Shown in pieces: positions 2,283-26,000 of a stretch of 64,000 nucleotides of DNA. This DNA comes from Romanomermis culicivorax (lineage: Eukaryota; Nematoda; Enoplea; Mermithida; Mermithidae). Numbering within the stretch: the first letter of the stretch is position 1; the number at the start of each line of letters is the position of its first letter. The notes below the pieces were generated by a model. That model was given only the letters and a program-made list of their open reading frames with translations. It was not told the DNA's origin and did no database searches. The stretch lies in contig CAWUHX010000350.1 in the NCBI GenBank assembly GCA_963922205.1, positions 62,001 through 126,000 on the forward strand, given 5' to 3'. Made by a program: the position numbers and the translations under genes.

Positions 2283-3791
2283 GTTTACGCTTTCGATTGC
2301 CTTTTATCCGAAGGTGTAAACGTTATTTCCAAAATTGCTTACACCCTCCTCAAATTATGGTACAACAAAAAAGGTTAGTGTAAACCTCCTCATTTTATAC
2401 TTTTTTTTAAAAACATCAAATTTAAGGTTCAAAATTTAATTCGAAATGCATCGAGAAATTTAATGACGACGTATCTGACTTTTGTCGAAATATAATCATT
2501 TCACCGCAAGATCTATTAAAAGTAAATTACTTTTGTTATTGATATGTTGAGGTTTGCGTATTTTTATGTCATATTTTCTCATTCCAGGTACGTCATCAGT
2601 TATTGTATTGTACTGTATTGTACTGCATTGTACTGTACTGTATATATGTATATATATATATATATATATATGTACAATACGTGCAATTTATACTGTGCCA
2701 ATAACATTTATGTACTACATAAAGTAGGTAAAACATATATAATACAGATAATTCATATAAAATACATACAATAGATAGGATATATATATATATATATATG
2801 TATATATATGTACTATACAATACCATACAATACAATATAATACCATACAATACAAAACCACACAATACATTACAATACAATACAATACAATACAATACAA
2901 TACAATACAATACAATACAACAATACAATACAATACAATACAATACAATACAATACAATGCAGTACAATGAAATAAATAAAATACAATAAAGTACAATAC
3001 AGTACATTACATCACATTACAATATGGTACATTACAGTACATTACTTTACATTACATTACATTACATTACATTACATTACATTACATTACATTACATTAC
3101 ATTACATTACATTACATTACATTACATTACATTACATTACATTACATTACATTACATTACATTACATTACATTACATTACATTACATTACATTACATTAC
3201 ATTGCATTGCATTACATTACATTACATTACATTACATTACATTACATTACATTACATTACATTACATTACATTACATTACATTACATTACATTATATTAC
3301 ATTACATTACATTACAATACAATACAATACGACACAACACAATAGAATACAATAAATACAATACAATACAATACAATACAATACAATACAATACAATACA
3401 ATACAATACAATACAATACAATACAATGCAATATAATGCAATGTAATATAATAGAATACAATGGAATACAAGGCAAAACAAGACAATACAATACAATGTA
3501 TTACATTACATTACATTACATTACATTACATTACATTACATTACATTACATTACATTACATTACATTACATTACATTACATTACATTACATTACATTACT
3601 CTACATTACAATACAATACAATACAATACAACACGACACAATAGAATACAATAGAATACAATAGAATACAATAGAATACAATACAATACAATACAATACA
3701 ATACAATACAATACAATGCAACACAATACAATATAATAAGTCATGATATAATATGTATATGTAATACGTATATATAATATGTTATATATAC

Positions 3792-3858
<67 letters not shown>

Positions 3859-6193
3859 GTAATATGTACTCTTGTATATAACATGTATTATATATATTAC
3901 ATAAAATACATATATATTTATATCGCTATATATCACATTGTTGCCTTTTTATAATTCCACTTTTACATATGGTAAAGATAGAAAAACCTTTACAGAGCAC
4001 AAAAACAACAATTATCAAGCTACAATATCCCATAATTGATTTTTTTCAAGATCACGTTCAATAGTAAACAGCGTAAAACGTCTACCGGACCTGCGGCAAC
4101 AACACCCGAAAAATGCGACAGATTACTTTGCCGACGAGTGTCGAGTATAAGTAAAATTTTGACATCGAATATCAACGATGATCAATTCCCGGATTTTTTG
4201 CAATCGTCCAGTATTTTAACTTTCGATCAAGTAAGCAATTTTATCAAATTTAAGATTTTATATATAAAGTATGGCATTGTATATTTGTTTTTAGATGATC
4301 AGTATATTACAAAAAGTACCGTTGAGGCATCATTTACAAGAAATTCGAAAAATTTTCTCCATGCGAGATCACGGTATTAGTTTTATTAAATTTTGGTCAA
4401 TGGTAGAAGATTTCGCACCGACAATCCTAATTATTAAAACTACAAAAAATGAGGTATGGTGTATATTATGATAATTAATATATTTTATGTTAATGATAAT
4501 GACATATAATAACATATTTGTTAATTAAAATAATGTATAATAACATATATTACATGTTAATACATAATGCCACATATTGCATGTTAATGTATAATAACAT
4601 ATAGTACATGTTAATACATAATAACACATATTGCATGTTAGTATATAATAACATATATTACATGTTAATATATAATAACATACATTACATGTTAATACAT
4701 GATAACGCATATTGCATGTTAATATATAATAACATATATTACATGTTAATATATAATAGCATACATTACATGTTAATACATAATAATGCTTATTGCATGT
4801 TAATATATAATAACATATAGTGCATGTTAATACATAATAACGCATATTGCATATTAATATATAATAACGCATATTGCATGTTAATATATAATAATGTATA
4901 TGACATGCTAACATATAATAACATATATTACAGGATAATACATAATAACACATATTGCATGTTGATATATAGTAACATATATTATATGTTAATATATATA
5001 CATATATATAATCTTATATTTAATAGGTATTCGGAGCATTCTGCACGCAATCATGGTCAACGAGGCGGCATACGCCCAAAATGCGTTATTTCGGTACCGG
5101 CGAAAGTTTCTTATTTAAATGCCCCGGTATCAATCATTCCTCATCTTCATCATCAATTAATACAGTTAAAAATACAACTATAAATAATGGAACCATATTT
5201 TTTTATCCGTGGGTCGGCAAGGAATTGTGCATTACGGACTTAAAACCAGGGCAAGAATTATTCCAAGCGGCCAACGAAAATTGCCTTTTGATAGGCGGAG
5301 GGTAGGTGTATAGCTTACAGTATGATTATGTTACATGATGAGCAAGTACAAGTGATGGATAACTTACAGTATGATCACGTTACATGATGTGCAAGTGCAA
5401 GTGATGCATACCTTACAGTACAATCACATTAGATGATACATAAGAGTGTTGAAGGGCTTCCTGCGTGGTGCCGTAGCTGTCCCACCATTGGCCAATGTCT
5501 GGGTAGGTGTAACCATCCCGACCAGGGCTCAACAAAAATGGCCGGGTTCAGAACCCGTGGATTGGCAGAAACATCAATCCTACCAGTGGAATGTTGTATG
5601 TTACCATACAACAAGAGCAACAGATGGTTACCCTACAGTATGATTATATAACATGATGTGCAAGTACAACTGATGCATACCTTACAGTATGATCACATCA
5701 GATGATTCACAAGTGCAAGTGAGGCATACCTTACAGTATGACCATCTTACATGATGTGAGTGTAAGTGATGCATCCCTTATAGTATGGTCACGTTACATG
5801 ATGAGCAAGTGCGAGTGATGGATACCTTACAGTATGGTCATGTTATATGATGTGGAAGTGAGGCATCCCATACAGTGTGGTCACATTACATGATGGACAA
5901 GTGCAAGTAATGAATACATTACAGTATGGTTATGTTACATCATGAGCAAGTACAAGCAATGTGTACCTTACTGTATGATCACTTTACATGATCTGCAAGT
6001 ACAACTGATGGATACATTACAGTTTTCCTACACTGCTTAAAAATCTAAATTTTTATTTTTTTACAGGGCCATATGTTTGAGAAACAATTTGGGTGCTGGA
6101 TCCAGTGACGCCGCGTCCACGTTCCTCAATCCACCCCTTTCCACGGACAAAGATTTCGAAGTCGAACTTTTGGAAGTTTACGGCTTTTGTTAA
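2283..6193 (+). CDS. TBC1D24/Skywalker-like TBC-TLDc protein, C-terminal part
   Basis: Six exons join in phase: 2283-2373, 2427-2521, 4051-4230, 4295-4453, 5027-5301 and 6067-6193, giving 308 codons plus TAA. The first two (VYAFDCLLSEG; EKFNDDVSDFCRNI) match the end of a Rab-GAP-type TBC domain. The last three form a TLDc domain: RDHGISF, TILIIKTTKNE, VFGAFC, YFGTGESFLF, PWVG, LLIGGG, AICLRNN, then DFEVELLEVYGF before the stop. TBC plus TLDc in this order is the architecture of TBC1D24/Skywalker, which acts in synaptic-vesicle traffic and oxidative-stress resistance; that role is inferred from the family. The 5' half lies left of the T-rich tract or in the gap. A second frame in exon 4051-4230 with a possible donor near 4142 leaves some doubt about that linker exon. 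Introns hold pentanucleotide arrays and satellites. Confidence 0.85.
2600..3935. repeat. Pentanucleotide and TA microsatellites in an intron
   Basis: This part of the intron 2522-4050 holds TA runs (2650-2670, 2780-2810, 3785-3855), AATAC arrays (2830-2960, 3310-3425, 3610-3720) and ATTAC arrays (3045-3300, 3500-3600). AATAC and ATTAC differ by one base, so the block looks like several related expansions. No exon was found in it. Confidence 0.9.
4500..5010. repeat. 27-bp satellite in TLDc intron
   Basis: A unit of about 27 bp built on ACATGTTAATAcATAATAAC repeats roughly 17 times between exons 4295-4453 and 5027-5301. Because 27 is a multiple of three, long frames stay open (MLIYNNIYY-type repeats) but they are not genes. 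Confidence 0.85.
5305..6005. repeat. 49-bp satellite in TLDc intron
   Basis: Units of 49 bp built on CTTACAGTATGATCACGTTA followed by CATGATGTGCAAGTACAAG repeat about 13 times (unit starts at 5314, 5363 and 5412, for example). The same words open each copy of the heat-shock-element repeat elsewhere in the window (8180-8290, 23300-23390, 41496, 43675), so the array probably arose from that mobile repeat. A 167-bp LTR interrupts it at 5447-5613. Confidence 0.85.
5447..5613 (-). mobile_element. Solo LTR of a TRIM element
   Basis: It has the same 167-bp length and sequence as the two LTRs at 15074 and 15288, in the opposite orientation. Ends are TGTTG...CAACA. It is flanked by a 4-bp direct repeat AGAG (5443-5446 and 5614-5617), as expected for integrase-mediated insertion, and sits inside the 49-bp satellite. 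A lone LTR is what LTR-LTR recombination leaves. Confidence 0.8.
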
Positions 6194-6469
6194 AAGAGTT
6201 TAACCTGATTATAACCAGGTTACAAATTTTTTTAAAAGTTATAATATGTTTATATCGTTGATTTTTTTCGCATCCTGTTGATCCACGTAAGGTCGACTAC
6301 CTCCGCTATTTATTGTACAATGTTGCAATATTAAATTTTTTCTGGATGGGCTTTCCTCAAATGTCAGCCATGCTTTGAGGACTATACATGAAACTGAATG
6401 TCTATCCTGGATGCATCCAAGACCCATCCAAGACACGCCCAATACAAAAACTAGACTAATCCTAGATGT

Positions 6470-7330
6470 GTCTTGTATGGATCACAAATGCCTGCAAGAC
6501 ACATCTGTGATGCAACAAGGATGCATACCAGACACCTCCATAATCAACCCATGACCCATCACAGATGCCTCCATGATACACGCAGAACCCATGCCAGGCC
6601 TCTGCATAATGCAGCCAGAACCCACCCCAGATGCCTCCATAATGAACCAAGGAACTATCCCAGACACTTCAATAATGCACACCGGACCCATCCCACACAC
6701 CTTTGTGATGAAGCCAGGGCTCATGCCAGATGCATCCATAATGCACCCACGATCCAACCTGGACACCTCCATAATGCACCCAGAAACCATCTCAGATGCC
6801 TCCATAATCCACCCAGGACCCACACCAGATGACTCCATAATGTACCCAGGATTCATCCCATGCACCTCCATGCTTCACCGAGGATTCATCGCAGCCACCT
6901 TCATAATGCACCCAGGACCCATCCCAAACACCACCATAATGCACCCAGGACCCATCTCACACACCTGCAAAATGAATTCAGGACCCATCCCAGATGTCAC
7001 GTGTTCCACAGCCGTACATCACCCCTTCGTAACTATCGCAACACTGGTTCGGTAGTTCAATCGGAAGAACGCTGCACTATAGTCACAGAGACCCAGGTTC
7101 GAATCCCGGTCGAGCATTATTTTTCGAACAGTGTTTGGCGATGGTTACGATGGCAACGCGTTTACCCATTACATGTCACAGACCTCTCTATAATACATTC
7201 AGGATAAATGCCAGACACCTCCATAATGCACCCAGGACCCATGCTCGACACCTCTATAATGCACCCAGGTGCCATGCGACAAACCTCCATAACTCACCCA
7301 GGACCCATCCAAGACACACCTAGAATGCAT
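6470..7330. repeat. 33-bp minisatellite
   Basis: Degenerate 33-bp units built on CCTCCATAATGCACCCAGGA and ACCCATCCCAGACA. The unit is a multiple of three and stop-poor, so frames stay open on both strands with an 11-residue period (HPGPIPDTSI-like). There is no start context, splice signal or composition of a real protein. The same family lies at 480-1010 (duplicate copy) and, inverted, at 22740-23270. It begins about 280 bp after the TLDc stop codon. Confidence 0.85.
7001..7172 (+). mobile_element. tRNA-like SINE, copy 1
   Basis: The element holds a Pol III A-box-like TAGTTCAATCGG and a perfect B box GGTTCGAATCC, spaced as in a tRNA gene, and keeps D-arm and T-arm complementarity (GTTC/GAAC; CCAGG/CCCGG with one mismatch). 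The anticodon arm does not pair. A 7-bp duplication ATGTCAC flanks it (6994-7000, 7173-7179). It matches the - strand copy at 25190-25372 over its whole length, and its first part recurs at 1010-1109. Confidence 0.75.
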
Positions 7331-8005: not shown

Positions 8006-11000
8006 CTAGGTATAACCACTCTTTTCGTCTCTGCCGGCGAGGTAAACAATGCCGGCGAAGCCTCTACTCCCGCCGTGGTGCACCCTGGATATGATCAACA
8101 TCTGATTCGATTCCGAAACGATCTTGTTCTTGTTCGGCGGTGTCGTACAACAAAGTCTGTAAAAAAATTGATGTATAACTTGTTTGGAGTATAAGTGATA
8201 CATATCTTACAGTATGATAATGTTATATGATGCGCAAGTACGAGTGATGTATACCTTACAGTATGATTATGTAATGTGATGTGCAGGTACATTTTTGTAT
8301 CCTCGAAAGTTCTAGAAACTTCCACAATATTCTGTAATATATTCTACAATGTTCTAGAATATTCCGTGATGGTATATATAGGAAAAAGTAGTCTAGAATG
8401 GGTGCCGAATGCATCCTGGACATGTCTGCGATGTGTTATAAACACGTCCCAGACATGTCAGAGACAGGTAGTGGATGCATTCCAGATGTGTCTGGGTGGG
8501 TTGTGGACATGTCCTATGCGTGTCTGAGATGCATGCTGAATGCATTCCGGATGTGTATGGGACGGCTTGTGGACACACCCCAGATATGTCTAGGGCAGGT
8601 CTTGGATGCATTCTGGACTTATCTGGGACAGGCGTTGGATGCATTCCACATGTCGTATTAACGTGGTCGTATACCCTCGGCTGCCTACCTGCGGTTCTTG
8701 GGAGATCCAATCTGGTACGGCCCCTGACGCTAACCCGGTACTAACTTCACTCCTACTGCAGTGAGTTGAGACTTGATGTACGTGAACGTTTATTAGTGAA
8801 CACAACACAACAGGTAGTGAAATACAATGAGGAATATAAGTACGAAACAAAGATGCAGAGTGCCGAAAATATAAACACTGACGCCAACAACCTCCCTAGT
8901 CGTCTGATCCTTCTAATTTGTCCCTGAGCGGCGAGCCACAGGGCCAATGGGATCTCTCAGGCCACGGCCTAAGCTGAAACTCTACCAAAATAGGTGAACT
9001 AACTCAAACTACCACTCACTGATTCCTCTCTTCAAAATGGAACGTCGAAAGCGTCTCAGGCCGCGTTATTACTCAAATTCGCCCGCGGCGCGTATCACGA
9101 AATACAAATGAACAAAACGACGATCCTCTCCTTCGTCACCACCGTCCAAAATAACACAGCGTCCAAATGCTATGGTGCAGACGCCAATAGTACACAAGGG
9201 AGAGGCGAATCTCCAGACGCGAATATTTTTCACAATAATAAGAAAAACTAAGAATGAATAAAAACGCTGGCGCGCGTCTAACATCGACCTGCAAGTGATA
9301 TGCAAAACATTTGCGCCAACCATTTGTTTATTTTAGACCAAAAATATGAGTGACACAAACCGTTTTATCGGTTTGTTTACCTGAGAATAAATGAAAACAC
9401 TTTAGCAATAAAGAAGCTTTAGAAAATGAAATGATGTAATTAGAGGACCAAAGGTCAGAGGAATTGACCCTCTGACATCCCTCCCCCCCAAAGGCAAGAC
9501 TTTTCCCGCCAGTGAAGGGAAAAGTCAGGAGGTCCCCCAAGGGCCCCAGACCCTCGACGCCGATGATCGACGCCTCCAAATGTTCCAACCAACGACGCTA
9601 CGCGCCGTTGACGCAATTATAAACAATAAAAAAAACAAAGTGTCCGTATCGAACGGTATCGCTACAACTTTGGGCCAATTGCGCCGAATGCTACCCGACG
9701 CTAAAAAATTCGCCAATAAAATGCCCCGTGGGCTCGTGGTCCCAAATACAAGAATAAAAAATGTTTGAACGAATAGCGTTCGCGGCACTCGGGCCGAATT
9801 TTGATCAAGATAAAAATAAAAACGTTTTATCGGCGGCGACCCCCGCGGTGCCCGAGTTAGGTTGTGGGCTGCTCCCCACTGCCGTCGATGTATTTCGTAT
9901 CGGCGGCTCCTCCATCACGGATTGTGGCATTCGTCTCCGTGCTCTCCGGAGGGGGGGTTGTTGCTCGTGGAGAGCCCGCAAGACTTTCCAAATTCCGCCG
10001 CCGTTGCTCCTCTGGCCCCTTGGCTGGACACTGGCCCCCCCAACGCCTTTGGTATTATCTGCCCCCAGGGAGAAAGGATGCCCGAAAAACCAAATCCTCT
10101 GGCCCTTTGGCTGTCTAGATTTTGAACCAAAAATGTTTATGGTATTTAATGCTAAAGTGAATTTGCCTTATTAAGAGGTAAACTTAAACCCATAACACGG
10201 TCTGTGCCACGAAAAAATTTTAGAATGAAAATGTGTTTTGGAAAAAGGATGGAAAAAATATGAAAAATGGCAGCGCAAAGCCTGCTACCCTTGGGTGATG
10301 TCAATTGGTGACTTTTCGGAAAGGAACACAAAAATACCCGCGATTTAAGAAGGTACAAAAAATTGCTTGGCAATTTCCAGATTCGCAAAAAAAAGAAATA
10401 CAATATATTCCCGTGCAGATCTCGAACAAAACACAAACGAAAAAAAAAATAAATGAAACAATTTGAGATTCGTACAGGAGGCAACTTTAAGGCATAAAAA
10501 GGTGGCACAACCGGTTTCGATTTTGTAATACAGACGCTCAAAACGGAAAAAATAGGTAACTTTTGAAATATCGAAAAAATTTTACAGAACGAAATAATTA
10601 TCTTTATAATGACCTCACGGAGAGTGGGGTCATCTGAAACATAAAAAATTTACTTCCTTCTATGACCGCTATGGTCACGTCCCGGTTGACCAATACCGGT
10701 TTCCCGTTTAAGCGGCGAAATATATTCGGGATTTTCGGTCGACGGCGGTCTCGTACTTGTCGACGTCCCCGGGATGTCCATCCTTTCCTCGGTTTGCACA
10801 TTACGCACCGGCGGAATCATTGTAGGCGGAGGCATCTGCATTCCCGGCGGAACTATGAACTGGTGGTAAAATTGGGGTTGCCCGGCCTGAAACTGCATGA
10901 CCGGAAACTGCGGGACTTGAAACTGTGCCGGTGGCGGCACCATTGTATTCGGGAATAACTGTCCTGAAAAAAGAGGGCAGTTTATACAATCAACACCCAC

Positions 11001-14000
11001 CATTGGCAATCCCGGATAATTCGGCGGAAAATAAGGTAACTGCTGCTGCTGGGCTTGCATCATCGCGTTTGGATCGGCCATTGACACTCCTTGCTGAGTT
11101 GTTTCAGTGGCCCTAGACCTGTCCAGTGAAGTCCTTCGACTGGAGTAGGACACGTCCACTCTATCATCGTGTTGGTAATATGCCGATGTTCTTTTTCTAC
11201 TTCGAGACTCTCTACTATCTTTGCGTTCTGCCGCTTCTCTCTTTTCTCTTTCCTTCCTTTCGTATTTCTTTTCGTAGTCATCGATCTCTTTCCGCCAACT
11301 TTCTTCTTCAGCTTCCTTGCATTTCTTTTCTCGCGACATCGACTTCTCTTGATGACTTTCGTCTCTGTGCCGACTTTCGTGCCTTCTTTTTCTGTCGTTT
11401 TCCGGCGTTTTCGATTTCTCCGTTCTTTGCGTATCACTTTCTTTTCTACTCCATCGTTTGGATACCTTACTGGTCGCAGGCCTAGCGTGGGCATGCTTGA
11501 CTCGGTATCCCACTCTTTTCTTTAAGGCTTTTTGAACTTCCAATATATCGTGAGCCTTCTTTCGATCGATAACTTCCCAAAACCGTATTCTGGGGTCCGT
11601 ATTGTCAATTTCCTTTTTCTAAACTTGTATATTCGTGTATTTGGGTTCAGGGTCCTTCTTGTCTTGCAGCACTGCCTTAGCAACCGTATACGCTAACCCC
11701 GCTGCCTTTGCCTGACATGAGGAGTATAACCTATGAAAATTGCTCCCTGCCCCTCCTTGCCTAGCGTTGAACTCGCGGCGCAATTTCATCGTAACATACG
11801 CATGGGCTTGGTAATGGAATCCAGCGAAATTTTGGGGAATCCTGCCCAATCTCGACAATTTCATAAATAGACACGCGCAAGCCCATACGGCGGCTTCATA
11901 GGCTTTCTCCGCAGATCGTGTAGTACTCCATTCCGTTAATTGAAGCTCGAAAATACTCCACAATTTTTCTGGCAAGTTCGCCTGAAGAATGTGAAACTGT
12001 AGTTCGTAATATCGTATAGTTTCAATTTCGATCCCGGCTTCGTCGTACACACGGTTTATCAAATCCGTCGCCATTAGAGCTACCTCTTCGTCTAAAGTCG
12101 GATCCATGTGCGCGAGATACTTCTGGACACATGGGTTTGACAGAGATACTCTCCCATACTGGAAATCGACGACGTACTTTCCTCCCTTCAAAGCCTTGTT
12201 AAGAACTTGTCCCCGTTTCCCGAGGCCTCGTCGATATTTTACTTTATCATTTGGATTTCCGGGTGGCTGTTGAAACTGCCCGCTCTTTACTTTGTCCAGT
12301 TCGGCTTTATTTTCTTCGCGACCTATCCGTTTCTCTGTAGCCTGTCTTTTCGATTGCATCACTTTCGCAAATTTTCCCGGATTCTTGATATTCTCTACAT
12401 TTTGCCCACCGGCTTTTGCATAAACCGGCGGCGTGGGCAAAACGTTATCCGTAATTTCTTCGTCATCGCTACCGATCTCTGATACCACTTCCACGTAGGG
12501 TTCTTCGCTCGTTTCTTCTTCCTCGGGATTGACATCTTCTAATTGCTTTGCTAATTCGATTGCGGCCTTGCCGTATTTTTCTTTTTCCAAAACTTCTATT
12601 TTTTCCTTCATTTCTTTTATCTGGTCAGTTAATTTCTCCAAATCGGGTTGGGTTTCTCTTTCAGTTTCGACTATTTCCATGAGTTTCTCCTCCTCTTCAA
12701 CACCTGTACTCCCCTCAGCGGGTGTACTGGCGATAGGGGGATCCGTGATGACCACAACTACGGGTTTCTCTTGCTCCATCTCGGTACCTGAAACATTCGA
12801 ATTATCTATTGTAGAGGGTACTGTCACAGTCTGCTCCTTCGAAGTTTCTTCCATAGGGCCCTGGCTAGCGGGAACCACAACTTCTACTTGCGGAGTCAGA
12901 TCTGAATCGTCCCACTTATTTACAGACTTAAAAGTTGCAGAGGTGCTAGGGGCCCATAGGTCCTTAGCCTCGAATATGGACGCGGAAACATTCCAATAAA
13001 TAAGATTTTGGCTCGCGGCATGAATATTCAAAAAATGAAACAAGTTATAAAAGTTACAATTCATATGATAAATAGAATTATCGCGCAAATTGGTCTTTAT
13101 TTCTTGGATAGGTTCTTTGCAGGATCGCGGTATCCATCTTATAGGTAGTACGCAAAAAGTGTTCTGGATGGATTTCGGCGTACGTATCTTCGGATACCGT
13201 TCCATCATCTGCTCCATTTGATTGGTAATTTTGTCGTTCAAAAGATCCTGGCCCATCCACTTCATAAATTCAACCCGTTCCTGCTCATTTCTCCACACAG
13301 AGGCCCACATACCAGACGTGAATCCAGGAACCCAGGATTTCCACTCTTGCGCCGAGTGAGGCCACAAGAAGTAAATGATTGGGTTCACGTTTTTCTCGTA
13401 CAAATCTTTGACTATGGGGACGATTGATCGGTCGATTTTGGCGTGATAATGGTCTTTAAGTGCCGAAACTTGTTCTCGTATAACATTAGTGAAGTGGATC
13501 ACTTCCTTAGGCCATTTTCCTTTTTTCATTTCCATTTCCCGGGGTTCAATTGGCCGTCCGAACTGCCGTGCCGCCAAGATATCCTCTAAATCCCAATCGT
13601 TTGTCGGTGCTTCTTCGGAGTCGTCCGTATTTTTTCTTTTCCTTGACGCTTTCACTTTTCTCTCTATCCACGGGAACCAACCGTTTGGTACTGGCTGTGG
13701 CTCAATATCGGTATTGGAGAAATGCGGAGGACAATGAAAAGTCCCGGGCGCCATTTCCTCCGACAATTTATACGTCGCTATAGCTTCTCCACGCATCATG
13801 AAATACAATGCGTCGGTGTTATCTGTTACTTCTTCCACTCCATATGCTCCTTTCCAGTCTGGATCCGCATATCTACCTTCGAACGTATCTCTAAATCTTC
13901 GTGCTAGATCGGAGATCAATTCCGGCTCCATCGTGTCGTGTGGATACAATTGAAAGCAATTTTGAATATCACTCGCGAATCCGTATCGAAGTAACGCTAA

Positions 14001-17000
14001 GAAACACACAAGAGACCCGCGCGCGTCGAGCGTCGCGTATCTCAGAAGTTCTATGTTTAGCTTATCTGCCTCCATTAGCTGTCGAAACTCTAGGGAACTC
14101 AACTGTCCCCACGAAATCTTGAAGGCGTGGGCCCATAAAAACAAAATTTCCGTCATGAGGGCTTTCAAATTGAGACCTTCGGGGCTGATTCCGACTATTC
14201 TTGCTTTCGGCTTGTCCCTCATTTCTGCCAACACAATCTCCAAATCGTAAACGCAGCACGATAAAATATAATCTATGTTGTCCCGTTTTTTCCGCACAAG
14301 TTCTTTTTCTTGATCCAAATATCCGAATTTGGTCAAAACTAATGTGATGTCCTCTCGGATATGAAAACCGACGATGATGTTTTCGCGGCGAAATATTGTT
14401 CCATATACTTTGTGGAAATGTTCTTTGTCCCAAAATTTCAAATCGATTATGAAGTTCTTTCCGCACATGGTTGAAATTGTTAAAAGTCGCAATGCGTCGC
14501 TAGGCTTCGATCCTGGGGTTTTTGGCTTCCTCCCACTTTCTGTATCCAACGCTATGACTATCCGTCCTCGGAACTTCGAATTGTTTATCGCTCTAATAAA
14601 TGCTTTCAAATTTTCGGGCGCCAAAAATAATGGTTCTTCGATGGCCGCATGAGGCACACCGAACAACGACGTGAAATAATTTGAAATATCCGTTGAACGC
14701 ACTAATCTTCGAACATTGTAAGCTTAAAATTTTCATACAATTTTCTAACTACAATTTTTGACAATAATTTCGAAACAAAAACGACTCAAATGCACAAGAA
14801 TAAATTTGGACGAAGGGGAGTTGATCAGGCTCTCAAACACCCAAAATCCTCGGCATATAAATTGCCGGCCGGTCAACTCAGAGTCCTATTCCGAAAAATT
14901 TCAACATATATTCTACCCTTCCGATACTTACTACTAAGTTGAAAATTCGTATTATCTTGCCGATCTTGAGGCTGCCCGAAGGTGCTATCAATTTCGACGA
15001 TAGTGGACGTTGCCATATCGCGTTTGGATTCGAATTTCTTGAAATTTCCAATCGACGAAAATTACTAATACACTGTTGTATGGCAACATAAAACATTCCA
15101 CCCGTAGGATTGATGTTTTAGCCAATCCACGGGTTCCGAACCCGGCCATTTTTGTTGAGCCCTGGTCGGGATGGTTACACCTACCCCGACATTAGCCAAT
15201 GGTGGGACAGCTACGGCGCCACCCAGGAAGCCCTTCAACACTGGTGACCGTACCAGGGGCCCCCCTGTTGCTCCAAGGGGGGAGGGATGTTGTATGGCAA
15301 CATAAAACATTCCACCCGTAGGATTGATGTTTTAGCCAATCCACGGGTTCCGAACCCGGCCATTTTTGTGGAGCCCTGGTCGGGATGGTTACACCTACCC
15401 CGACATTGGCCAATGGTGGGACAGCTACGGCGCCACCCAGGAAGCCCTTCAACAACACTAACGCTTTGCAAATGAAATCTAAAAAATAATTCCATAATTC
15501 CTCGGCTTCGACTTCAATGATTCGGGGAAGATTTTCCCGGGACTTATAAAGATTTAATTTTTTCACACTGAGCGCGTGAAAAAATATTACTTCACCCATT
15601 AAAAATTTTCCGGCGTCATAATTTTTTGGAAAATGCCCAAAACTTGCCATAAAGTTGCCAAAAATAAGTCAGTACAATTAAAAATTGAAAAAGAAGAAAG
15701 GGGAAAAGGTTAGAAAAAATACAATACACAGGGCATTAGAAAATACACATAAAATTAATCCTAACAAAACGCCCACCGAAAACGATAAAAATGAATTGTT
15801 AATTACAGTAAAAATCGGGCGTTCGCGTAACAAAAGGCATTACGCGATTTACAGAAACTATTTGTACGCGCGATTCTGGTTTCCCAGCGCGACGTATTTT
15901 AATGACATTTTTTCCTAAATTCGATGTCTCAATTACTTCGTACGGACCGTCGTTCGTTGTGTCGGCCTTTCCTTTGATGATTCCCTTCTGGTAGAGAACA
16001 AGTTCTCCCGTTTGGAACGTCTTCTCGCGAGCCTTCTTATCATACTGTAATTTTCTTTCGGCCGCGGATTTTTTATGGTTTTCATTTATGATTTTATACG
16101 TGTTAAGGAGGTGCTCCGTTAACATGTATCTGTAGGTATCGTAATTATTCTGGATAATTATTGGCCTCGCTATCTCATTATCCAATTGAAACCTTGCCTC
16201 GTGTCCGTACAGTAGGCTATGGGGGGAATTTTTCGTTGTTTTGTGCGGCGTAATCCGATACGCAAATAAAATTTGCTCGAGGTAGTGTGGCCAATCGTCC
16301 GGGTCGGTTATCGCGACTCTTCTAATTTGCTCTATTAGTGTTCTGTTGAATCTCTCCACCATACCATTGCACTGCGGGTGGTATGGTGTTGTATTTATTT
16401 TCTTTATTTTTAAGAGATCGCACACGTTGCGCATTAACTCGGACATGTATGCTGAGCCTTGGTCACTCAGCAAGTGTTTTGGCGTTCCGTGCGTATAAAT
16501 GACCTTTTCCATAAATGCCTTCACTATTGTGTCGGCCTTTTGATCTGGGATGCATTTTGCCTCGACCCATTTCGTGAAATAGTCCATAAATACAATAACA
16601 TATGGCCTTTTTTCCCGGAGAGGCGAAATACTGACCACGTCGGTTGCTACTATCTCCCAAGGATACGAGACGGGTATTGGGTTAAGTGGTTGGATCGGAT
16701 TTGCTATGGGGCGGCACAGTTGGCAAACGACGCAGGATTTTATCCATTTAATAATGTCGTTTTCCATATTTGGCCACCAAAACTTGTTTCCTATCGCGGC
16801 GATAATTCTATCTATTCCCTGGTGCCCCATTAATGTATCGCCGTGATATTGATGTAAGATGAGGTGTCTAAGTCTTGATGGGATCACTAGTTGGCTTTTT
16901 CCATGGGCATTTTCACGGTATAATACTCCGTTTTCCAAGTGAAAACTATTAAAGTATTTTTTCGAACTATTTTCAGCAACGTTCCGAAAAATGTCCACCA

Positions 17001-20000
17001 ACTTCGGATCCAATTGTTGTTGTTTCTTAACTAATTCCAGGGATAATAATTCGGAATCTTTTTTCACTTCCTTCGGTGTTTGGTCTATTTCTTGTTGCGT
17101 CGGCGGTGGGGGATCAATGAATGTTTCCTGAGTCTCGGGTTCAAGCATTTGCCTCGTCATGGCTCTCGTAACCGCCATGCATTCGGGTTCCGTAGTCGAT
17201 TTCTCATCTTCGATTTCTTCCTTTGTTTCTTGTCTCTTACTTCGAATCTTTCCCTTTTCTTCGGATCGTGATAAGAAATCTGCGAAGGCGTTTTCACGTC
17301 CGGCGACGTATTCGAATATATAATTAAATTGTCCAAGATATAAAGCCCACTTTAACAACCTTTGATTTTGCTGTTTCTCTGCGGAGAGCCACGTGAGTGG
17401 TTTATGATCTGTCCTGATTGTGACCCTAAACCCCATCACGTAGTGCCTATACTGTTTGAACCCGTAAACTACCGCCAAACATTCTCTTTCTGTCGTTGAA
17501 TACCTTGTTTCCGCGTCGTTTAAAACTCGACTCGAGTAGGCTATTGTCCATCGATCGTTTTCCGTTTCCTGATACAAAATTGCCCCTATTGCCGTTCCTG
17601 AGGCATCTGTTTGAATTACAAATCTTGCCGATCCATCGAATACTGGATATCGTAGGAAGGGTGCTGTCATTAGGGCATTCTTTACACTTTCAAAAGCTGC
17701 CAACTGCTCCTCTGAAAGTTCAAACTTTTCCTTCCTATTCTTTTTTGTGAGGGCTTTAAATAAGGGTTGGGCGATAAAGGCTAAATTGTGAATGAAACGT
17801 TTAGACCACTGCACTAATCCCAAGAACTTTTGCAGCTGCTTGATGGATTTGGGTACTTCGAAATTTTTTACCGCTTCTATCTTTTGTGGATCTACTGACA
17901 TTCCCTTCTTGTCCAATATGTGGCCTAAGAATTTCACACTGGCTGGCATAAAGGAACATTTATCAGGTTTTAATGTGAGGTTCGCGTTTGTTAGACATCG
18001 AAATATTGTCTCCAAATTTTCTATATGTTCTTCGACGGTTTTTGAAAAAATTATGACATCGTCGATATATACTAGGCATATTTTCCATACATATGGATAC
18101 AAAATTCGTTCCATTAGTCGCTGGAATTCCGCAGGAGCATTCTTTAAACCGAACGGCATCACCTTGAACTGGAACAAACCTTCTTGACATATAAACGCTG
18201 TTTTTTCTTTTGATTCGGAGTGCATCGGTACCTGTCAGTACCCAGACTTTAAATCCAATGTTGAGAAGTACCGTGCTCCTCCTAGCGCATCTAAGTAATC
18301 ATCGATTCGAGGTATCGGAAATTTGTCGTCTTTCATCACTTGATTTATTCCTCTGTAGTCAACTACTGGTCTCCATGTGCCATCTTTTTTGCCTACTAAA
18401 AACAATGGCGCAGCCCAAGGGCTTCTAGAAGGCTCGATGACCCCCTTTTCCATCATATCCTTGACATGTTCTCGGATTATATCTCTTTGCATAATTGGAG
18501 CTCTCCAGTAGTGTTTTTGGACAGGTAGCGCATCTCCTGTATCGATCTTATGCTCCGCTTCGTGAGTCATCGTTAAAGGGTCGTTCTTCATGCTGAATGC
18601 CTGTCTATGCTTGAGTAAGACATTCATAAGCTGTTGTTGTCCTTCTCTATCGACACTCGATTCTTTTACCAACTGCGTAACAATTTTGACGAATTCGGGT
18701 TCGATTTGCCACTGAGTTTGAGGCTCTGATTGCAGTTGATGTATTTTTTCGTCAAATTCTGGCCCCACGAACTTCGTTTTGGACTTGGCTATCAACTCGT
18801 TGCTGCGCAATTTGATTCCTTTGTTTGTCTCATTTATGAGTAGGATACGAAAATTGTTGTCTCTAGCGTCCACAATTGAGGCATCGACGTCAAATAAAGT
18901 GTCTTTCCCCGTTTCTTCTACCACTATAGGACCCTTTGCCCAATCTTTCTGTGGCCAAACCACAGCTTGCACAAAAGAAGTGGTATTTGGGGGAATATAT
19001 GTCCCGTTTTTTGTCCAAATAAAGGTTTCTTCGTTCATTTCAGTAATTCGCATCACTTGTTCTTGATCCTCGTCACTTTCCAATTCAGGTAGATCTTCTT
19101 CTTTGACTTCTTCTTGTAGAGGTACGTAATCTAGAACCATGGGATTCGTAGGAATCGGTAAACGGGACGGTATTTGCGCATCGTCGAATAATGTCTCACT
19201 AATAATTTGTTTCTCTACATTTGCTAGACGTATGTGGCCGTTTCGAAAATCGATAGACGCCTGTATACTAGGATGGGTTAGAAAATCTAGGCCCAATATA
19301 ATGCCTTCATTTAGGTTATCTAGTAACGCGAATCTGGCCAGAAAATTCCCAAAACCGGTTCCAACGTACACAAATGTAGGACCATATGTTGTCACCCGTT
19401 TTCCGACAGCTGTTATGACTGAATTTAGGATAGGGAATTTTGTTTTGGGCGTATTCAGTAGCCTTGACGCTGTATCTGTCCTCATGAAGCTAGATTGCGC
19501 TCCCGTATCTATTAGGGCTTTAAATTCTTCTCCGCGTATCCTAACGGGTATCAATAACGGCTGACATTTGCGAAAATTTTCCAAAAATAGGTGCTCGTTA
19601 TCATTGGCGAGTCTAGGCTTCGTCTCTGAAGTAGAATTGATAACGTTCCCCAGGCCTAATTCGTAATTTTCTATCAAAACTCCATCTAATGCTATAATTT
19701 CCGGCTTATCTTGTTTTTTAGCCTCTTGTGAATTTATAACATTTACGGAATTATTCGGAGGGTTATTCACCGGTTGCGATGTTGTTGCGGGTACAATATT
19801 TGGCGGTGGCTGCGGGGCGTTATTTTGGCGGTAATAATATGCCACATTTGGATTCTGTTCGACATTATTATTGTGATATGGCAACTGTTGGCCGAAATTA
19901 GCAAATCCTGCTCTTCCACGATTTACAAAGCCGCCGCGATGGTCAAAATTTCGATTATTAAAATTATTGCCGCGATTCCACGACCTCCCTTGATCCGTTG

Positions 20001-23000
20001 GTTGGATCAATTCCGGGTGCAGGATAAAACAATTCTCAGACGAATGGCTATTCGATTTGTGGTATGTACAATACGGTCGACGATACGGATTTCCCAAAAT
20101 TCTACCAGGTAAATTGTTATTATATGGTACATTATTAGGATTATTATTGACTCCCCAACGATTAAGAGTTTGAGGACCCTGATTCCTAATTGCCTCATTA
20201 ACCATTTTCATAATATCCTGTTGTGATAAAGGAGTTTGAAATGCTGGTGGTGGCGGGAAAATTTGCTGAGGCCGTATAATCTGTTGTTGTTGACCAGTGT
20301 TAGTATCCTGCGGACGAAATTGTAAATTATTAAATCTTCTATTTTCATAGACTCGATTCAACCGATCATCTTCGCCGTCTTCCTGGTCCTCGCTGAATTC
20401 CTTCCAGGCCGTCGTATCGGCTTTCAACTTGTTTACGAATTCCGCCAAAGAGGCGATATTTTTGAACTCGTGCAGCCGACCCTCCATTCGTGTCTGGACA
20501 TAAACTGGAGCCTTGTGAAAATACGTTTCGATGACAATACGATTTCGTTCATTTTCGGTTTTTTCGTAATTTAATAAATGAACATAAGTTTTTATTCGGT
20601 GTAAAAAATCCTTTGTCGTCTCCCCTTTTCGTTTTTTCATATCATGTAACTCCCTTCTAAGTGCAGGAGTGTCCATTTTGGGAGCAATCATTCTAATCAC
20701 ACTCGCTTTTCCTTCTTCATAGCTACTATTTTTATCCACGTATGTCGAAGTTTCAAAATCGCAACATCGCCAAAGTACTTCAATTCTTAGGTCTTCGGTA
20801 TCTTCAGGCTTGAATGTGCCTTCCAAGCAGGCGAAAAAATTGAGTATCTCTGCGGCCTCCATTTTATCTGATATTTCTTTGTTCTTCATTCGACCCAAAA
20901 TTACCTTGATTCTTTTCTCAGGATCTTCGCAATATCGTCCATAATCTTGCTGATTTCGAGTTATACTTCCAGATACAGGTTGTTCCATTCCGCGATTCCA
21001 TGACGTTGTTGGTATTTCATCTTCCATCCTTCGATATTGTGCGCCTTGAGCCTGTGCCTGGGCGAGATGATTTTCGAACCAATTCAATTTCCTTTCTAAA
21101 CTCCTGTCTAAATGGTCTTTAACCGGTTCAGACTGAAGTATTTCCGTATTTTCGTAATTTGATATTCTTTCATCGAACTTCTTATCCGTTTTCCTCATCA
21201 ACTCCCGCATTTGTTTTTCGACCTCTTCCATTATCTTTCTCGCATTTTGTTGATCCTGCTCTCGTAACTTTTCTTCCAATAATTTTCTCTCTGCTCTTTC
21301 TTGCATAAGTTGTTCTAATATTTCTTGTTCCCGGAGCGCTGCTTTCGTTCTTTCTACATTAACGGCATTTGTTGATTTATCGACTGCTCTTTGCATTGAT
21401 TCCAGGATGGCTAAAGTGGCCACATCCTGCAAATTCCCTTTCGTCGGTCTTTCGGTTTCCTTCCTCGGTTTCGTTTCGATACCAATTTTTGCGTCGATTT
21501 CTGGTATTGTAGGCGTATATTTCGAATTATGAAATGATACCACATTCGTTTTTGGAGTTACATTAATCTTTTCGAAGGATGATACTGAACCAGAGGACGT
21601 CTGTATCCCCTGATCCGCATAATCATATGTCTCTGCGTCAATAGTCTGATCTTTGTTGCTGTCGTCGGGTGAATTCGCAAATTTCTTTGCTACTTGTTCG
21701 ATCGTTGCTTCCATATTTGCCATCCGTTCGTTGTGATCCTCCTTATTCAATTCCATTTGCGATAATGTTACTTTCGGCCGTCGTCCAGGTTGCTTCCGTA
21801 TCGTTAATTTCGGCTTCGATACTTTCTTCATCTTTTACCTTTGTAGCTGCACAAGTCACCAATGTCGTATTAACGTGGTCGTATACCCTCGGCTGCCTAC
21901 CTGCGGTTCTTGGGAGATCCAATCTGGTACGGCCCCTGACGCTAACCCGGTACTAACTTCACTCCTACTGCAGTGAGTTGAGACTTGATGTACGTGAACG
22001 TTTATTAGTGAACACAACACAACAGGTAGTGAAATACAATGAGGAATATAAGTACGAAACAAAGATGCAGAGTGCCGAAAATATAAACACTGACGCCAAC
22101 AACCTCCCTAGTCATCTGATCCTTCTAATTTGTCCCTGAGCGGCGAGCCACAGGGCCAATGGGATCTCTCAGGCCACGGCCTAAGCTGAAACTCTACCAA
22201 AATAGGTGAACTAACTCAAACTACCACTCACTGATTCCTCTCTTCAAAATGGAACGTCGAAAGCGTCTCAGGCCGCGTTATTACTCAAATTCGCCCGCGG
22301 CGCGTATCACGAAATACAAATGAACAAAATGACGATCCTCTCCTTCGTCACCACCATCCAAAATAACACAGCGTCCAAATGCTACGGTGCAGACGCCAAT
22401 AGTACACAAGGGAGAGGCGAATCTCCAGACGCGAATATTTTTCACAATAATAAGAAAAACTAAGAATGAATAAAAACGCTGGCGCGCGTCTAACATCGAC
22501 CTGCAAGTGATATGCAAAACATTTGCGCCAACCATTTGTTTATTTTAGACCAAAAATATGAGTGACACAAACCGTTTTATCGGTTTGTTTACCTGAGAAT
22601 AAATGAAAACACTTTAGCAATAAAGAAGCTTTAGAAAATGAAATGATGTAATTAGAGGACCAAAGGTCAGAGGAATTGACCCTCTGACACACATGTGTTT
22701 GGGATCAGTTGTGGGTACGTCCTAAGCGTGTCTAAGACATTTACCAGACGCATTCAAGATGTTCCGGGACAGGTCCTTGGTGCATTATAAAGGTGTTTCG
22801 GATGGCTCCTGGGTGCATTATGGAGTTGTCTAGGATAGGCCTTGGGAGCATTATGGAGGTGTCTGACATGGGTCCCAGGTTCATTGTGGAGATGTCTGGG
22901 ATGCGTGCTTGGTGCATTATAGAGTTGTCTAGGATGGGTCCTGGGTGCATCATGCAGGTGTCTGGGGATGGGTCCTGAGTCCATTATGGAGGTGTCTGAC

Positions 23001-26000
23001 ATGCGTCCCAGGTTCATTGTGGAGATGTCTGACATTGGTCCCAGGTTCATCCTGGAGATGTCTGGGATGCATGCTGGGTGCATCATGGAGTTGTCTAGGA
23101 TGGGTCCTTGGTGCACTATGGAGGTGTCTGGGATGAATCCTATGTGCATTATGGGGGCATCTGTGATGGGCACTGGGAGCATTATGGAGGTGTCTGGCAT
23201 GGGCCCTGGCAGCATTATGGAGCTGTCTGAGAAGGGTCCTGGGTGCATTATGGAGGCATCTGGGATGGCTCATATTCTAGTGTTCAAAATATAACTGATA
23301 CATATGTTAAAGTATAGTCAGGTTGCATGATATGCAAGTACAAGTGACACATACCTTACAGTATGATCACAAAATATGATGTGCAGGTACATTTTATGTA
23401 ATGCATTGCCCCGAAAAGTTCTAGAAACTTCCACAATATTCTATAATATTCTTTTACATTAACAATAACTTACCTGTACGTATTTACGGATAAGTCGTAG
23501 CCGGTATTAACGTCTAGAAAATCGCGACATATGCAATTGATACTGCAATTATAGCCGAATGATTCTCTTATCAATAGAAACGTTAGTTTTCGACCCGATG
23601 GAGCCTGTGTAAAATTTTTGTGCAAAGATCCACAAATGAGAAAAAAACTGCATTCGTACCCTGAATAACCAGGTACAATCCTGCGGAGGCATCAACTGTT
23701 GCCTGATCAAGTCCCCCGAGCCGAACGGGAATGGTCTACTTTCACCAATTTGCACAACTCCGCTGTTGCACCATGTGGCTAGAAGAAAAAAAAGGTCAAT
23801 TGCGCAATTGCTAAATGGCGTGCGTGGTGAGTCTAGCAGCCTGTGAGGGGTCAGGGGTTCAGTGCCCTCACCAAGCACTTTGTGCATTATGTAATAGGGT
23901 GCCATTCATCCTTAGCATAAGATTGTCAGTTTTACAATGTGATTCGCAAGTTTACTTCGTTTGGTGTCTACAGCTATTGTTATAATATATACAATGTTAT
24001 AACATAAAAACATATACTATGTCATAACATATACTATCCTTCAACATATCTCCATGTTATAGCATATATATTCCTAAAATATACCCCATGTTATAACATA
24101 TACAATATTATAGCATAGACCATGTTGTTACATATACTATCATATAACATATCGTATGTTAAAACTTAGGGCATGTTATAACACGGGCTGTGGTATAACA
24201 CTGAGTACGTTATAACATGGAGCATGTTATATTACAAGGTATCGTATAACAGGCGGTCTGTTTCATTACATACTCTATGTTATAACATGAGATATGCTCT
24301 AACTTGGGAGATGTTACACTATATTGCACGCGTTAACATGTCCCATGTTATACCATGTCCCAGATCATAACATACATCACATTAAAGGATTTGCATGCTA
24401 TAACATACCCCTTGTTATAACAAATATAATGTTATAACATATACAATGTTAAAGCATGTACAATGTTGTAACATATACTATGATATAACATATACTATGT
24501 TAAAACTTAGGCATATTATAACACAGGCTGTGGTATCACATAGTGTATGTGATAACAAAGATAATGTAATATTAAAAGGTATGTTATAAAATTGGGAGAT
24601 ATGTTATAACAGGAGGTGTTTTTTATATGGTGTATGTTATAACATGAGATATGCTATAACATTCGATATGTTATAATATATTGCATGTTTTAAGATGTCC
24701 TATGTTATAACATCTCTCACATGCCAACGTACACCACATTAAGGGATATACTTGTCATAACATATATTAAATCACAACAAATCTCACGTTACAACATATG
24801 CTATGTTATGACATATGCTATGTTATTTAAATCACAACACAAACTACAGATGCCTGTTAAAAGATATACGTTTTGGAGCAAAAAGCATGTTAATGCATTA
24901 TACGGCAACGTATAAACATACTGTATATTAAATATACATGCAGTATCTTGCTGTATCTTATAACATAGCCCTATGTTGTAACAATGACCTATGTTATAAC
25001 ATACAAAAACAAGGGTTTTTTCAGAAAATCTTTCATGTTGAAGCTATATGTTATAACATAGCATCATGTTATAACATAACATTTGATATGTTATAATGTA
25101 GGATGTGCTATAAGATATAATATGTTATAGCATAGCATACATTGTAACATGGAACGTGTTATAATGTGGGATGTGCTATTGTATGGTATTGACACGTAAA
25201 TGGGTAAACGCGTTGCCATCGTAACCATCACCAAACACTGTTTTGAAAAATAATGCTCGACCGGGATTCGAACCCGGATCTCGTTGACTATAGTGCAGCA
25301 TTCTACCGATTGAACTACCGAGCCAGTGTTTTGATAGTTACGAAGGGGTGATGTACGGCCGTGCGACATGTGACAGTATATGTTGTAACATGGGATGTGT
25401 TATAATATAGGATATGCTATAACATAGGATATGTCATAGGGTACATTGTAATATGCAACGTTTTGTAATATGGGATATGATATAACATGAGATATGTTAT
25501 AGATATGCTATAACATAGGATATGTTAGAGCATATGGTATGCTGTAACATAGAACGTTTTTGTAATGTTGGATATGCTATAGTGTGGGATATGTTACAGT
25601 GTGGTATATGTTATAACATGGGATGTGTTATAATATAGCATACACTATAGCATATGATATGTTACAACTTACAGTTTTTGTTATTGTGCACCATAACTTC
25701 GTTGCATTGTTTGCCGGTCAATCCGTATGGGCATATGCATTCCCCGCAATGTCCAGATTTACGCCACGTCATTCCGCCGTTACAGCATCGCGTGCTCGAT
25801 TGGCAAGTTTCTTTTCAAAAAGAAAGAGACTTTAGTCTTATTTTGCCTCAAATGTTCAATTTTTACCAGAGCAAAAAGTTTTATGTAGATTCCAGAGTGC
25901 ATCGAACGGAATTAAATTGTGACGGGGTATTTGGAAAACGCCGGGTTTGTTGGGACCCGGTTCAGCGTTATAGTCGTATATGTTAAATTGGCAAACTCGC

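What the first reader, a model, noticed from the sequence alone, without database searches (positions are those of the whole stretch)
11619..14723. LTR retrotransposon carrying a DEDDy 3'-5' exonuclease
Seen: in the env position the element has a frame of about 1034 codons with all RNase D/WRN-type Exo motifs (DTE, the second Asp in HIREDI, YATLD). Known: Ty3/gypsy elements encode Gag, PR, RT, RH and IN, sometimes env; an exonuclease of this class is not a standard part. MUT-7, which silences transposons in nematodes, has an RNase D-like domain. Inference: the element captured a host exonuclease and may use it in cDNA processing or to interfere with small-RNA silencing.
Basis: partly seen in the sequence, partly recalled or inferred. 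Interest (0 to 1): 0.87.

Follow-up and report, generated by a model that had tools for sequence, protein, structure and literature searches.

The report
Gypsy retrotransposons carrying an exonuclease gene
A jumping gene family in what appears to be a roundworm genome carries, where related retroviruses keep their envelope gene, a large protein with an RNase D-like nuclease domain that selection has preserved; the combination was reported before in bdelloid rotifers, but here it occurs in several element families and in a longer form.

Summary
Confirmed and extended. Window 8651-22689(-) is a Ty3/gypsy LTR element: 827-bp LTRs, CACA duplications, PR-RT-RNaseH-IN, then a third frame (ORF3) that opens with a DEDDy 3'-5' exonuclease domain. 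At least 44 copies carry it. D60, E62, D125 and Y229 are invariant in 44 of 44 copies, D233 in 42; pN/pS is 0.12 overall, 0.08 in the exonuclease domain. This copy's Pfam match is weak (PF01612, E=0.007, below cut-off), but a related family 31% identical passes the cut-off (E=5.5e-8). Four further families in the same genome (B-E) have a DEDDy frame behind integrase, each checked in one locus. Not unprecedented: bdelloid Juno/Vesta elements have DEDDy ORF3s (PMC5408684). New here: a nematode-like host, spread over two gypsy pol groups, strong purifying selection, a second conserved region, SR- or RGG-rich tails, and a candidate splice-acceptor start. Capture from the host, substrate and anti-silencing are untested.

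The parts
8651..9477 (-). 3' LTR (827 bp)
   Evidence: LTR pair 99.4% identical over 832 aligned bases, 4 mismatches and 1 gap; ends read
21863..22689 (-). 5' LTR (827 bp)
8647..8650 (.). target site duplication CACA (left); right copy 22690-22693
   Evidence: read from the sequence
21847..21861 (-). probable primer binding site (TGGTGACTTGTGC...) next to the 5' LTR
   Evidence: read from the sequence; pairing with a tRNA 3' end is inferred from the leading TGG, not tested
9478..9489 (-). polypurine tract GGGGGGGAGGGA before the 3' LTR
15799..21831 (-). gag-pol frame: Gag by position only (no gag capsid family listed), aspartic protease, RT, RNase H, integrase; in-frame stop at codon 1199 (18235-18237) in RT in this copy
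   Evidence: Pfam; stop positions
14723..14730 (-). candidate splice acceptor ATTTTAAG at the first base of the open frame (the in-frame TAA overlaps it)
   Evidence: TTTTAAG in 37 of the 37 copies in which my search string found the place (7 of 44 not found); family B has TTTTTTAG at the homologous codon and phase; no RNA evidence
10650..14723 (-). ORF3, 1357 codons in copy L002; in this copy an in-frame stop at codon 1035 (11619-11621)
13914..14633 (-). DEDDy 3'-5' exonuclease domain (residues 31-270): D60, E62, D125, Y229, D233
11589..12323 (-). second conserved region of ORF3 (residues 801-1045): lowest pN/pS (0.062), part of it matches family B, helical in a low-confidence model
10653..11588 (-). 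basic SR/RK-rich, then P/Q-rich tail (residues 1046-1357); family B has an RGG-rich tail instead
15075..15454 (.). 380-bp insert private to this copy (two ~167-bp units, MITE-like ends)
   Evidence: absent from the 7 other copies compared, L002-L008

Best explanation
ORF3 is an element-encoded auxiliary protein, not an envelope: an N-terminal DEDDy 3'-5' exonuclease joined to a second conserved region and a basic, RNA-binding-like tail (SR-rich in family A, RGG-rich in family B). I think it is made from a spliced subgenomic mRNA, goes to the nucleus or a germ granule, and trims or degrades RNA 3' ends there: most likely RNA bound by the element's own ribonucleoprotein (3'-end processing or quality control of genomic RNA), less likely the small RNAs that target it. 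Shown: the domain, its catalytic residues, its position, copy number and purifying selection. Inferred: splicing, RNA rather than DNA as substrate, place of action. My odds: DEDDy domain real 0.95; catalytically active 0.75; acts mainly on RNA 0.55; on the element's own RNA about 0.35, on host small RNA about 0.2.
For: Domain: PF01612 is the only Pfam family listed (E=0.0073); family D, 31% identical, E=5.5e-8 above cut-off; family C E=1.1e-11 above cut-off, family B E=5.5e-4 below it; A-B profile match E=5.3e-14. In an alignment of one exonuclease domain each of families A-E plus E. coli RNase D the six invariant columns are D59, E61, G87, D124, A229, D232 (numbered from the second residue). 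Selection: pN/pS 0.084 for residues 31-270, 0.122 overall, 44 copies; D60, E62, D125, Y229 in 44 of 44, D233 in 42 of 44. Family membership: at least 44 copies, LTR pairs in 10 of 10 copies whose flanks were fetched. Retention: A and B pol 49-52% identical, ORF3 25% over residues 1-376. Not env in A: best 19-residue Kyte-Doolittle mean 1.29. Candidate spliced start at the homologous codon and phase in A and B. Basic or RGG tail. Precedent for a nuclear, spliced, env-position protein in a nematode gypsy element: CERV of Cer1 (PMC10309623, abstract and passages).
Against: The window domain is below the Pfam cut-off, and none of the 44 family A places is among the 119 PF01612 matches of the genome search. 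The profile of A, B and D found no DEDD entry in the PDB. A-C and A-RNase D profile comparisons were not significant. The structure model had pLDDT 37.7 and its fold search found no DEDD nuclease among the 50 rows shown. No in-frame ATG precedes the catalytic DTE in family A. In B the frame stays open 32 codons upstream of the acceptor-like site, so that site is only a candidate. 22 of 44 copies have an in-frame stop in ORF3. Family B has one segment of mean hydropathy 1.79. No substrate or RNA data; WRN-type DEDDy domains also act on DNA (PMC5408684 passage).
Confidence: 0.5

Rival explanations
1. Counter-silencing nuclease: ORF3 degrades or trims the host's small RNAs, or mimics the exonuclease part of MUT-7, so that the element escapes silencing.
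For: The host looks like a nematode, and MUT-7, an exonuclease of the same class, is needed for germline small RNA production in C. elegans (PMC11347159, abstract and passages). The exonuclease domain is strongly conserved.
Against: No MUT7-C domain matched at E<=1. Selection across 44 copies is purifying; I did no site-wise test for fast change. A passage of PMC11347159 says Mutator complexes are absent outside Caenorhabditis, and rotifers carry DEDDy ORF3s too (PMC5408684).
Confidence: 0.2
2. cDNA-processing enzyme: ORF3 trims 3' ends of the reverse transcript (non-templated bases) before integration, or supplies proofreading.
For: The gene follows integrase in the element; some DEDDy domains (WRN, DnaQ, polymerase proofreading domains) cut single-stranded DNA (PMC5408684 passage).
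Against: Separate frame about 1.07 kb behind pol in this copy, with its own acceptor-like site; SR/RGG tail points to RNA.
Confidence: 0.18
3. RNA-binding regulator in which nuclease activity is dispensable: like CERV of Cer1, ORF3 exports or packages genomic RNA, and the exonuclease fold mainly binds RNA.
For: A spliced, nuclear, env-position protein needed for gRNA export is known in a nematode gypsy element (PMC10309623). Residues 801-1045 have the lowest pN/pS, 0.062 against 0.084 for the nuclease, although pN is nearly equal (0.0129 and 0.0125) and the difference comes from pS.
Against: All five catalytic residues kept in A, B, C and D; inactive DEDD derivatives such as Maelstrom and EXD1 are described as catalytically inactive (PMC5408684 passage).
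Confidence: 0.2
4. Chance motifs in a degenerate envelope or unrelated frame.
For: Bare motif spacing occurs in 2104 of 5000 shuffles; window domain below the Pfam cut-off.
Against: Homologous family over the cut-off, DEDD invariant across five families and RNase D, purifying selection.
Confidence: 0.03

Closest known systems
Bdelloid rotifer Juno and Vesta LTR retrotransposons with DEDDy ORF3 (Rodriguez, Kenefick, Arkhipova 2017, PMC5408684: outline, first of five parts of the text, and passages seen)
   Same: LTR element with pol followed by an ORF3 with an RNase D-like DEDDy exonuclease instead of env; several families in one genome; the authors also consider RNA 3'-end processing and a mut-7-like role
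   Different: Nematode-like host; no dUTPase matched in pol (the paper gives dUTPase for three of four bdelloid lineages); ORF3 of 1357-1396 codons with a second conserved region and SR or RGG tail; purifying selection here, whereas the paper reports no significant departure from neutrality; direct sequence relation to Juno/Vesta not tested (sequences not held)
CERV of C. elegans Cer1 (PMC10309623: abstract and passages seen)
   Same: Nematode Ty3/gypsy element; large frame between pol and 3' LTR, no env resemblance; CERV is made from a spliced mRNA, as is proposed here
   Different: CERV is described with H, M and a G-protein-like G domain; splicing and export are not shown for ORF3
MUT-7 / Nibbler / EXD3 exoribonucleases (PMC11347159: abstract and passages seen)
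   Same: Exonuclease domain of the same class, joined in most homologues to an RNA-binding part
   Different: No MUT7-C domain matched; element-encoded and multi-copy
Terminon / Athena Penelope-like elements with DEDDy ORFs (PMC6431247 and PMC5408684, passages seen)
   Same: Retroelement-encoded DEDDy exonuclease
   Different: Penelope-like RT, telomere-associated, not LTR elements

Membership tests
DEDDy 3'-5' exonuclease (PF01612) | ExoI DxE, ExoII D, ExoIII YxxxD in order | tested here: met
   D60, E62, D125, Y229 in 44 of 44 copies, D233 in 42 of 44; alignment with RNase D and four other families
DEDDy 3'-5' exonuclease (PF01612) | Profile score over the curated cut-off of 23.6 bits | tested here: inconclusive
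   Window domain 16.6 bits, not met; homologous family D 33.3 and family C 45.3 bits, met; family B 20.2 and E 23.2 bits, not met
DEDDy 3'-5' exonuclease (PF01612) | DnaQ/RNase H-like fold | tested here: inconclusive
   Single-sequence model pLDDT 37.7; Foldseek 0 matches at E<=0.001
DEDDy 3'-5' exonuclease (PF01612) | Metal-dependent 3'-5' nuclease activity | not testable with these tools
   -
Ty3/gypsy LTR retrotransposon | PR-RT-RNaseH-IN order between LTRs, with polypurine tract and short target duplication | tested here: met
Bdelloid-type DEDDy ORF3 element (Juno/Vesta) | DEDDy ORF3 downstream of pol | tested here: met
Bdelloid-type DEDDy ORF3 element (Juno/Vesta) | dUTPase domain in pol | tested here: not met
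   no dUTPase family at E<=1 in the two gag-pol frames
Bdelloid-type DEDDy ORF3 element (Juno/Vesta) | ORF3 groups with rotifer retroelement ORF3s in a tree | not testable with these tools
   rotifer sequences not held
Retroviral-type env | Transmembrane segment / fusion protein | tested here: not met
   Best 19-residue Kyte-Doolittle mean 1.29 in family A; no env family listed at E<=1. Families B (1.79) and C (1.66) reach the usual threshold of about 1.6 (recalled), so the test is less clear there
MUT-7 family | MUT7-C domain behind the exonuclease | tested here: not met
   no such family at E<=1
Cer1 CERV-type protein | Encoded by a spliced mRNA | tested here: inconclusive
   acceptor-like site at the frame start of A and at the homologous codon of B; no RNA data
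Cer1 CERV-type protein | H, M and G domains | not tested
   CERV sequence not held

The most novel reading that the evidence does not exclude
Nematode gypsy elements keep a pool of retroelement-specific DEDDy nucleases as a standing regulatory gene, made by splicing like CERV, which edits or destroys the small RNAs or RNA 3' ends used by the worm's silencing machinery: a retrotransposon tool in the same enzyme class as the host's own silencing nuclease MUT-7.
Probability: 0.17. Interest if true: 0.85.

Novelty: new variant of a known kind. Interest (0 to 1): 0.6.

Why it matters
I found DEDDy ORF3s in print for bdelloid rotifers only. Seeing them in a nematode-like genome, in five gypsy families of two pol groups, with strong purifying selection in the one family tested (A), suggests that an exonuclease is a recurrent, useful gene for LTR elements rather than a rotifer oddity. 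The many copies, and a clade with well-studied small RNA pathways and a known env-position regulator (CERV), make its function testable with simple biochemistry and RNA sequencing.

Tried and rejected
Single-sequence AlphaFold of the exonuclease domain (pLDDT 37.7) and of residues 835-1034 (pLDDT 51.6): Foldseek gave 0 matches at E<=0.001 for either; not used. Protein search with residues 1-300 of ORF3 against 5.8 billion proteins: 3604 candidates, none at E<=10. NCBIfam and PHROGs: nothing relevant. PDB sequence searches with the whole frame, the domain and the A-B-D profile: nothing relevant. Profile comparison A-C and A-RNase D: not significant. SL1 RNA: no match, but no control rang, so no conclusion. 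Frameshift as the cause of the split ORF3, my first reading in a note: rejected, the two frames are in phase. Host gene beside a single copy: rejected. Ustyantsev et al. 2017 (PMC5348765), cited in PMC6338049 for accessory domains together with the DnaQ-like exonuclease: holds neither 'exonuclease' nor 'DnaQ'. A genome search with pol, meant to find copies lacking ORF3, did not complete, so ORF3-less copies are not excluded.
Full report
What is there. On the minus strand, window 8651-22689 is one LTR retrotransposon: 827-bp LTRs (99.4% identical over 832 aligned bases, 4 mismatches and 1 gap), CACA on both sides, a probable primer binding site beginning TGG, and a polypurine tract. [quoted passage not shown] its first part is Gag by position only, no gag capsid family being listed. 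This copy has one in-frame stop in it, at codon 1199. After about 1.07 kb, 380 bp of it an insert that the 7 other copies compared lack, comes ORF3.

ORF3. The genome search scored 44 places (of 3270 first-look candidates, so a lower bound); 44 of 44 match over residues 1/2 to 1033/1034 at 93-100% identity, the window copy included; 16 of 44 have a stop inside the match; 32 of 44 lie in frames given as 1355-1361 codons, a number in which stops inside the match are read through. The copy in L002 is open over 1357 codons. Over all 1357 codons 22 of 44 copies have an in-frame stop in my column alignment. For 10 of the 43 other copies I fetched both flanks: 10 of 10 have an LTR pair, 98.9-100% identical, so the family moved recently.

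Is it a DEDDy exonuclease? By motif alone the case is weak (2104 of 5000 shuffles contain the bare spacing). The Pfam match of the domain is marginal (PF01612, E=0.0073, 16.6 bits, cut-off 23.6, covering profile positions 8-96), is not listed at E<=1 for the full frame, and a PF01612 search of the genome at E<=10 lists none of the 44 family A places among its 119 matches. The better evidence came from relatives among those 119, of which I read the DNA of 12. Grouped by eye: B (L066, L068, L069): 1396-codon frame, at least 33 copies at 96-100% (33 of 33 scored, 5017 candidates; 5 of 33 with a stop), domain E=5.5e-4, below cut-off, homologous to ORF3 of A (BLASTP E=1e-26 at 25% identity; profile E=5.3e-14). 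D (L074, L075, L078): copies with stops or gaps; L074 is 31% identical to A over the domain and matches PF01612 positions 20-166 at E=5.5e-8, above cut-off. C (L067, L070, L071, L073, L077): frames up to 609 codons, L067 E=1.1e-11. E (L076): frame of 508 codons, E=6.6e-5, just below cut-off. In an alignment of one member of each group with E. coli RNase D six columns are invariant: the four DEDD acids, one Gly, and the Ala after the ExoIII Tyr; the Tyr itself is Ser in E as aligned. Against this: profile comparison of A with C and with RNase D was not significant, and the A-B-D profile matched no DEDD entry in the PDB. I put the domain assignment at 0.95.

All five are gypsy-type. In the one locus checked per group, integrase lies upstream on the same strand: B (L072; RNase H 52%, integrase 49% identical to A), D (L079; integrase 48%), C (L067; degenerate; only the integrase zinc-binding family passes its cut-off) and E (L080; an RT-RNaseH-IN frame of 708 codons). 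C and E are 43% identical in integrase, while C and E match A, B or D at 23-36%, and A, B and D match each other at 45-49% (C-D not compared). So there are two pol groups, A-B-D and C-E, and within the first the ORF3-pol association predates the split. Whether the two groups share one old gain, an exchange, or separate gains is not resolved.

Selection. Over 44 copies pooled pairwise pS is 0.157 and pN 0.019 (ratio 0.122); residues 31-270 give 0.084, residues 801-1045 give 0.062, the tail 0.166. These are Nei-Gojobori-type proportions without correction or tree; stop codons were skipped but broken copies were kept, which pushes the ratio up. D60, E62, D125 and Y229 are kept in 44 of 44, D233 in 42. 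The bdelloid paper reports no significant departure from neutrality for its ORF3s (PMC5408684, passage).

Anatomy beyond the nuclease. Best 19-residue hydropathy mean is 1.29 in A, 1.79 in B, 1.66 in C; A has no envelope feature, B and C reach the usual threshold of about 1.6 (recalled). Residues 857-986 of A match 1126-1251 of B (E=8e-6) and are helical in a low-confidence model. The tail is SR/RK-rich in A (18% R, 15% K, 14% E, 12% S over residues 1057-1200) and RGG-rich in B (14 RG/GR steps): I infer RNA binding and a nuclear or granule location.

Start. The first in-frame Met comes after the DTE motif. The open frame of A begins exactly behind TTTTAAG, present in 37 of the 37 copies in which my search string found the place (7 of 44 not found). 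B, at the homologous codon and in the same phase, has TTTTTTAG, but its frame stays open 32 codons further upstream. Nematode acceptors are usually TTTTCAG (recalled). The three best donor-like sites by a recalled matrix (window 21900, 21946, 22592) lie in the 5' LTR; none has been shown to supply an ATG in phase. B has an ATG at the eighth codon after its site, where A has GTG. Splicing is a proposal; the start codon of A is unknown.

Host. (TTAGGC)5 gives 12229 + 13202 overlapping hits (reversed control 0 + 7); the TTAGGG comparison did not complete. 50 of 85 scored matches to the cuticle collagen family PF01484 pass E<=0.001; it rang in none of 14 control genomes, but those that the tool named are prokaryotes, so this is no test here. 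TTAGGC telomeres and that collagen family are, as I recall, nematode traits. The species was not identified.

Known work. Rodriguez et al. 2017 (PMC5408684; outline, first part of five, passages) describe DEDDy ORF3s in bdelloid Juno and Vesta elements and in Athena elements, discuss RNA 3'-end processing and a mut-7-like role, and say that activity is undemonstrated; the word nematode does not occur in it. PMC6431247 and PMC5718144 (passages) repeat the rotifer case; PMC6338049 (passages) calls a DnaQ-like exonuclease a known accessory domain of LTR elements, citing Rodriguez and two papers; one of them, PMC5348765, does not hold the word, the other (Novikova 2008) I did not see. I found no report of a DEDDy ORF3 in a nematode LTR element in the listings of searches (open-licence PMC text only). 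PMC11118728, on transposons of plant-parasitic nematodes, appeared in listing 112 and was not opened. For Cer1 CERV (PMC10309623) and MUT-7 (PMC11347159) I saw abstracts and passages.

Verdict. A real, selected, multi-copy retroelement gene; a new variant of a published kind. Its mechanism remains inference.

Noticed in passing
window 1-1109, 1110-1209, 5992-7099: Bases 1-1109 repeat at 5992-7099 at 99.6% identity and end at a 100-N run: probably an assembly artefact beside a gap.
   Followed up: partly
window 15075-15454; 5445-5613: A 380-bp insert of two ~167-bp units, TGTTG...CAACA ends and ACACT flanks, private to this element copy among the 8 compared; a 93% similar inverted unit lies at 5445-5613. 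MITE-like.
   Followed up: partly
window 2840-3560, 4450-5070, 6398-7060, 22739-23335, 26451-29353: Many tandem arrays with units of 10, 27, 33, 12 and 17 bp on both sides of the element.
   Followed up: no
window 7046-7117 and 25253-25324: Two tRNA-like genes (ata and tat anticodons) inside 134-bp arms that are 90% complementary: perhaps a tRNA-derived repeat.
   Followed up: no
G000, e.g. C4:1345264-1345492: 25431 overlapping (TTAGGC)5 hits, those listed mostly at positions inside contigs: abundant interstitial telomere-like arrays.
   Followed up: no
G000 PF01612 matches; loci L067, L070, L071, L073, L077, L076: A second group of exonuclease frames (up to 609 codons) behind a different gypsy integrase; some of the 107 matches that I did not read may be host genes such as MUT-7.
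   Followed up: partly
P0121: An environmental protein 61% identical to the RT part of this element on a 10055-base contig; whether that contig holds an ORF3 could not be seen.
   Followed up: no
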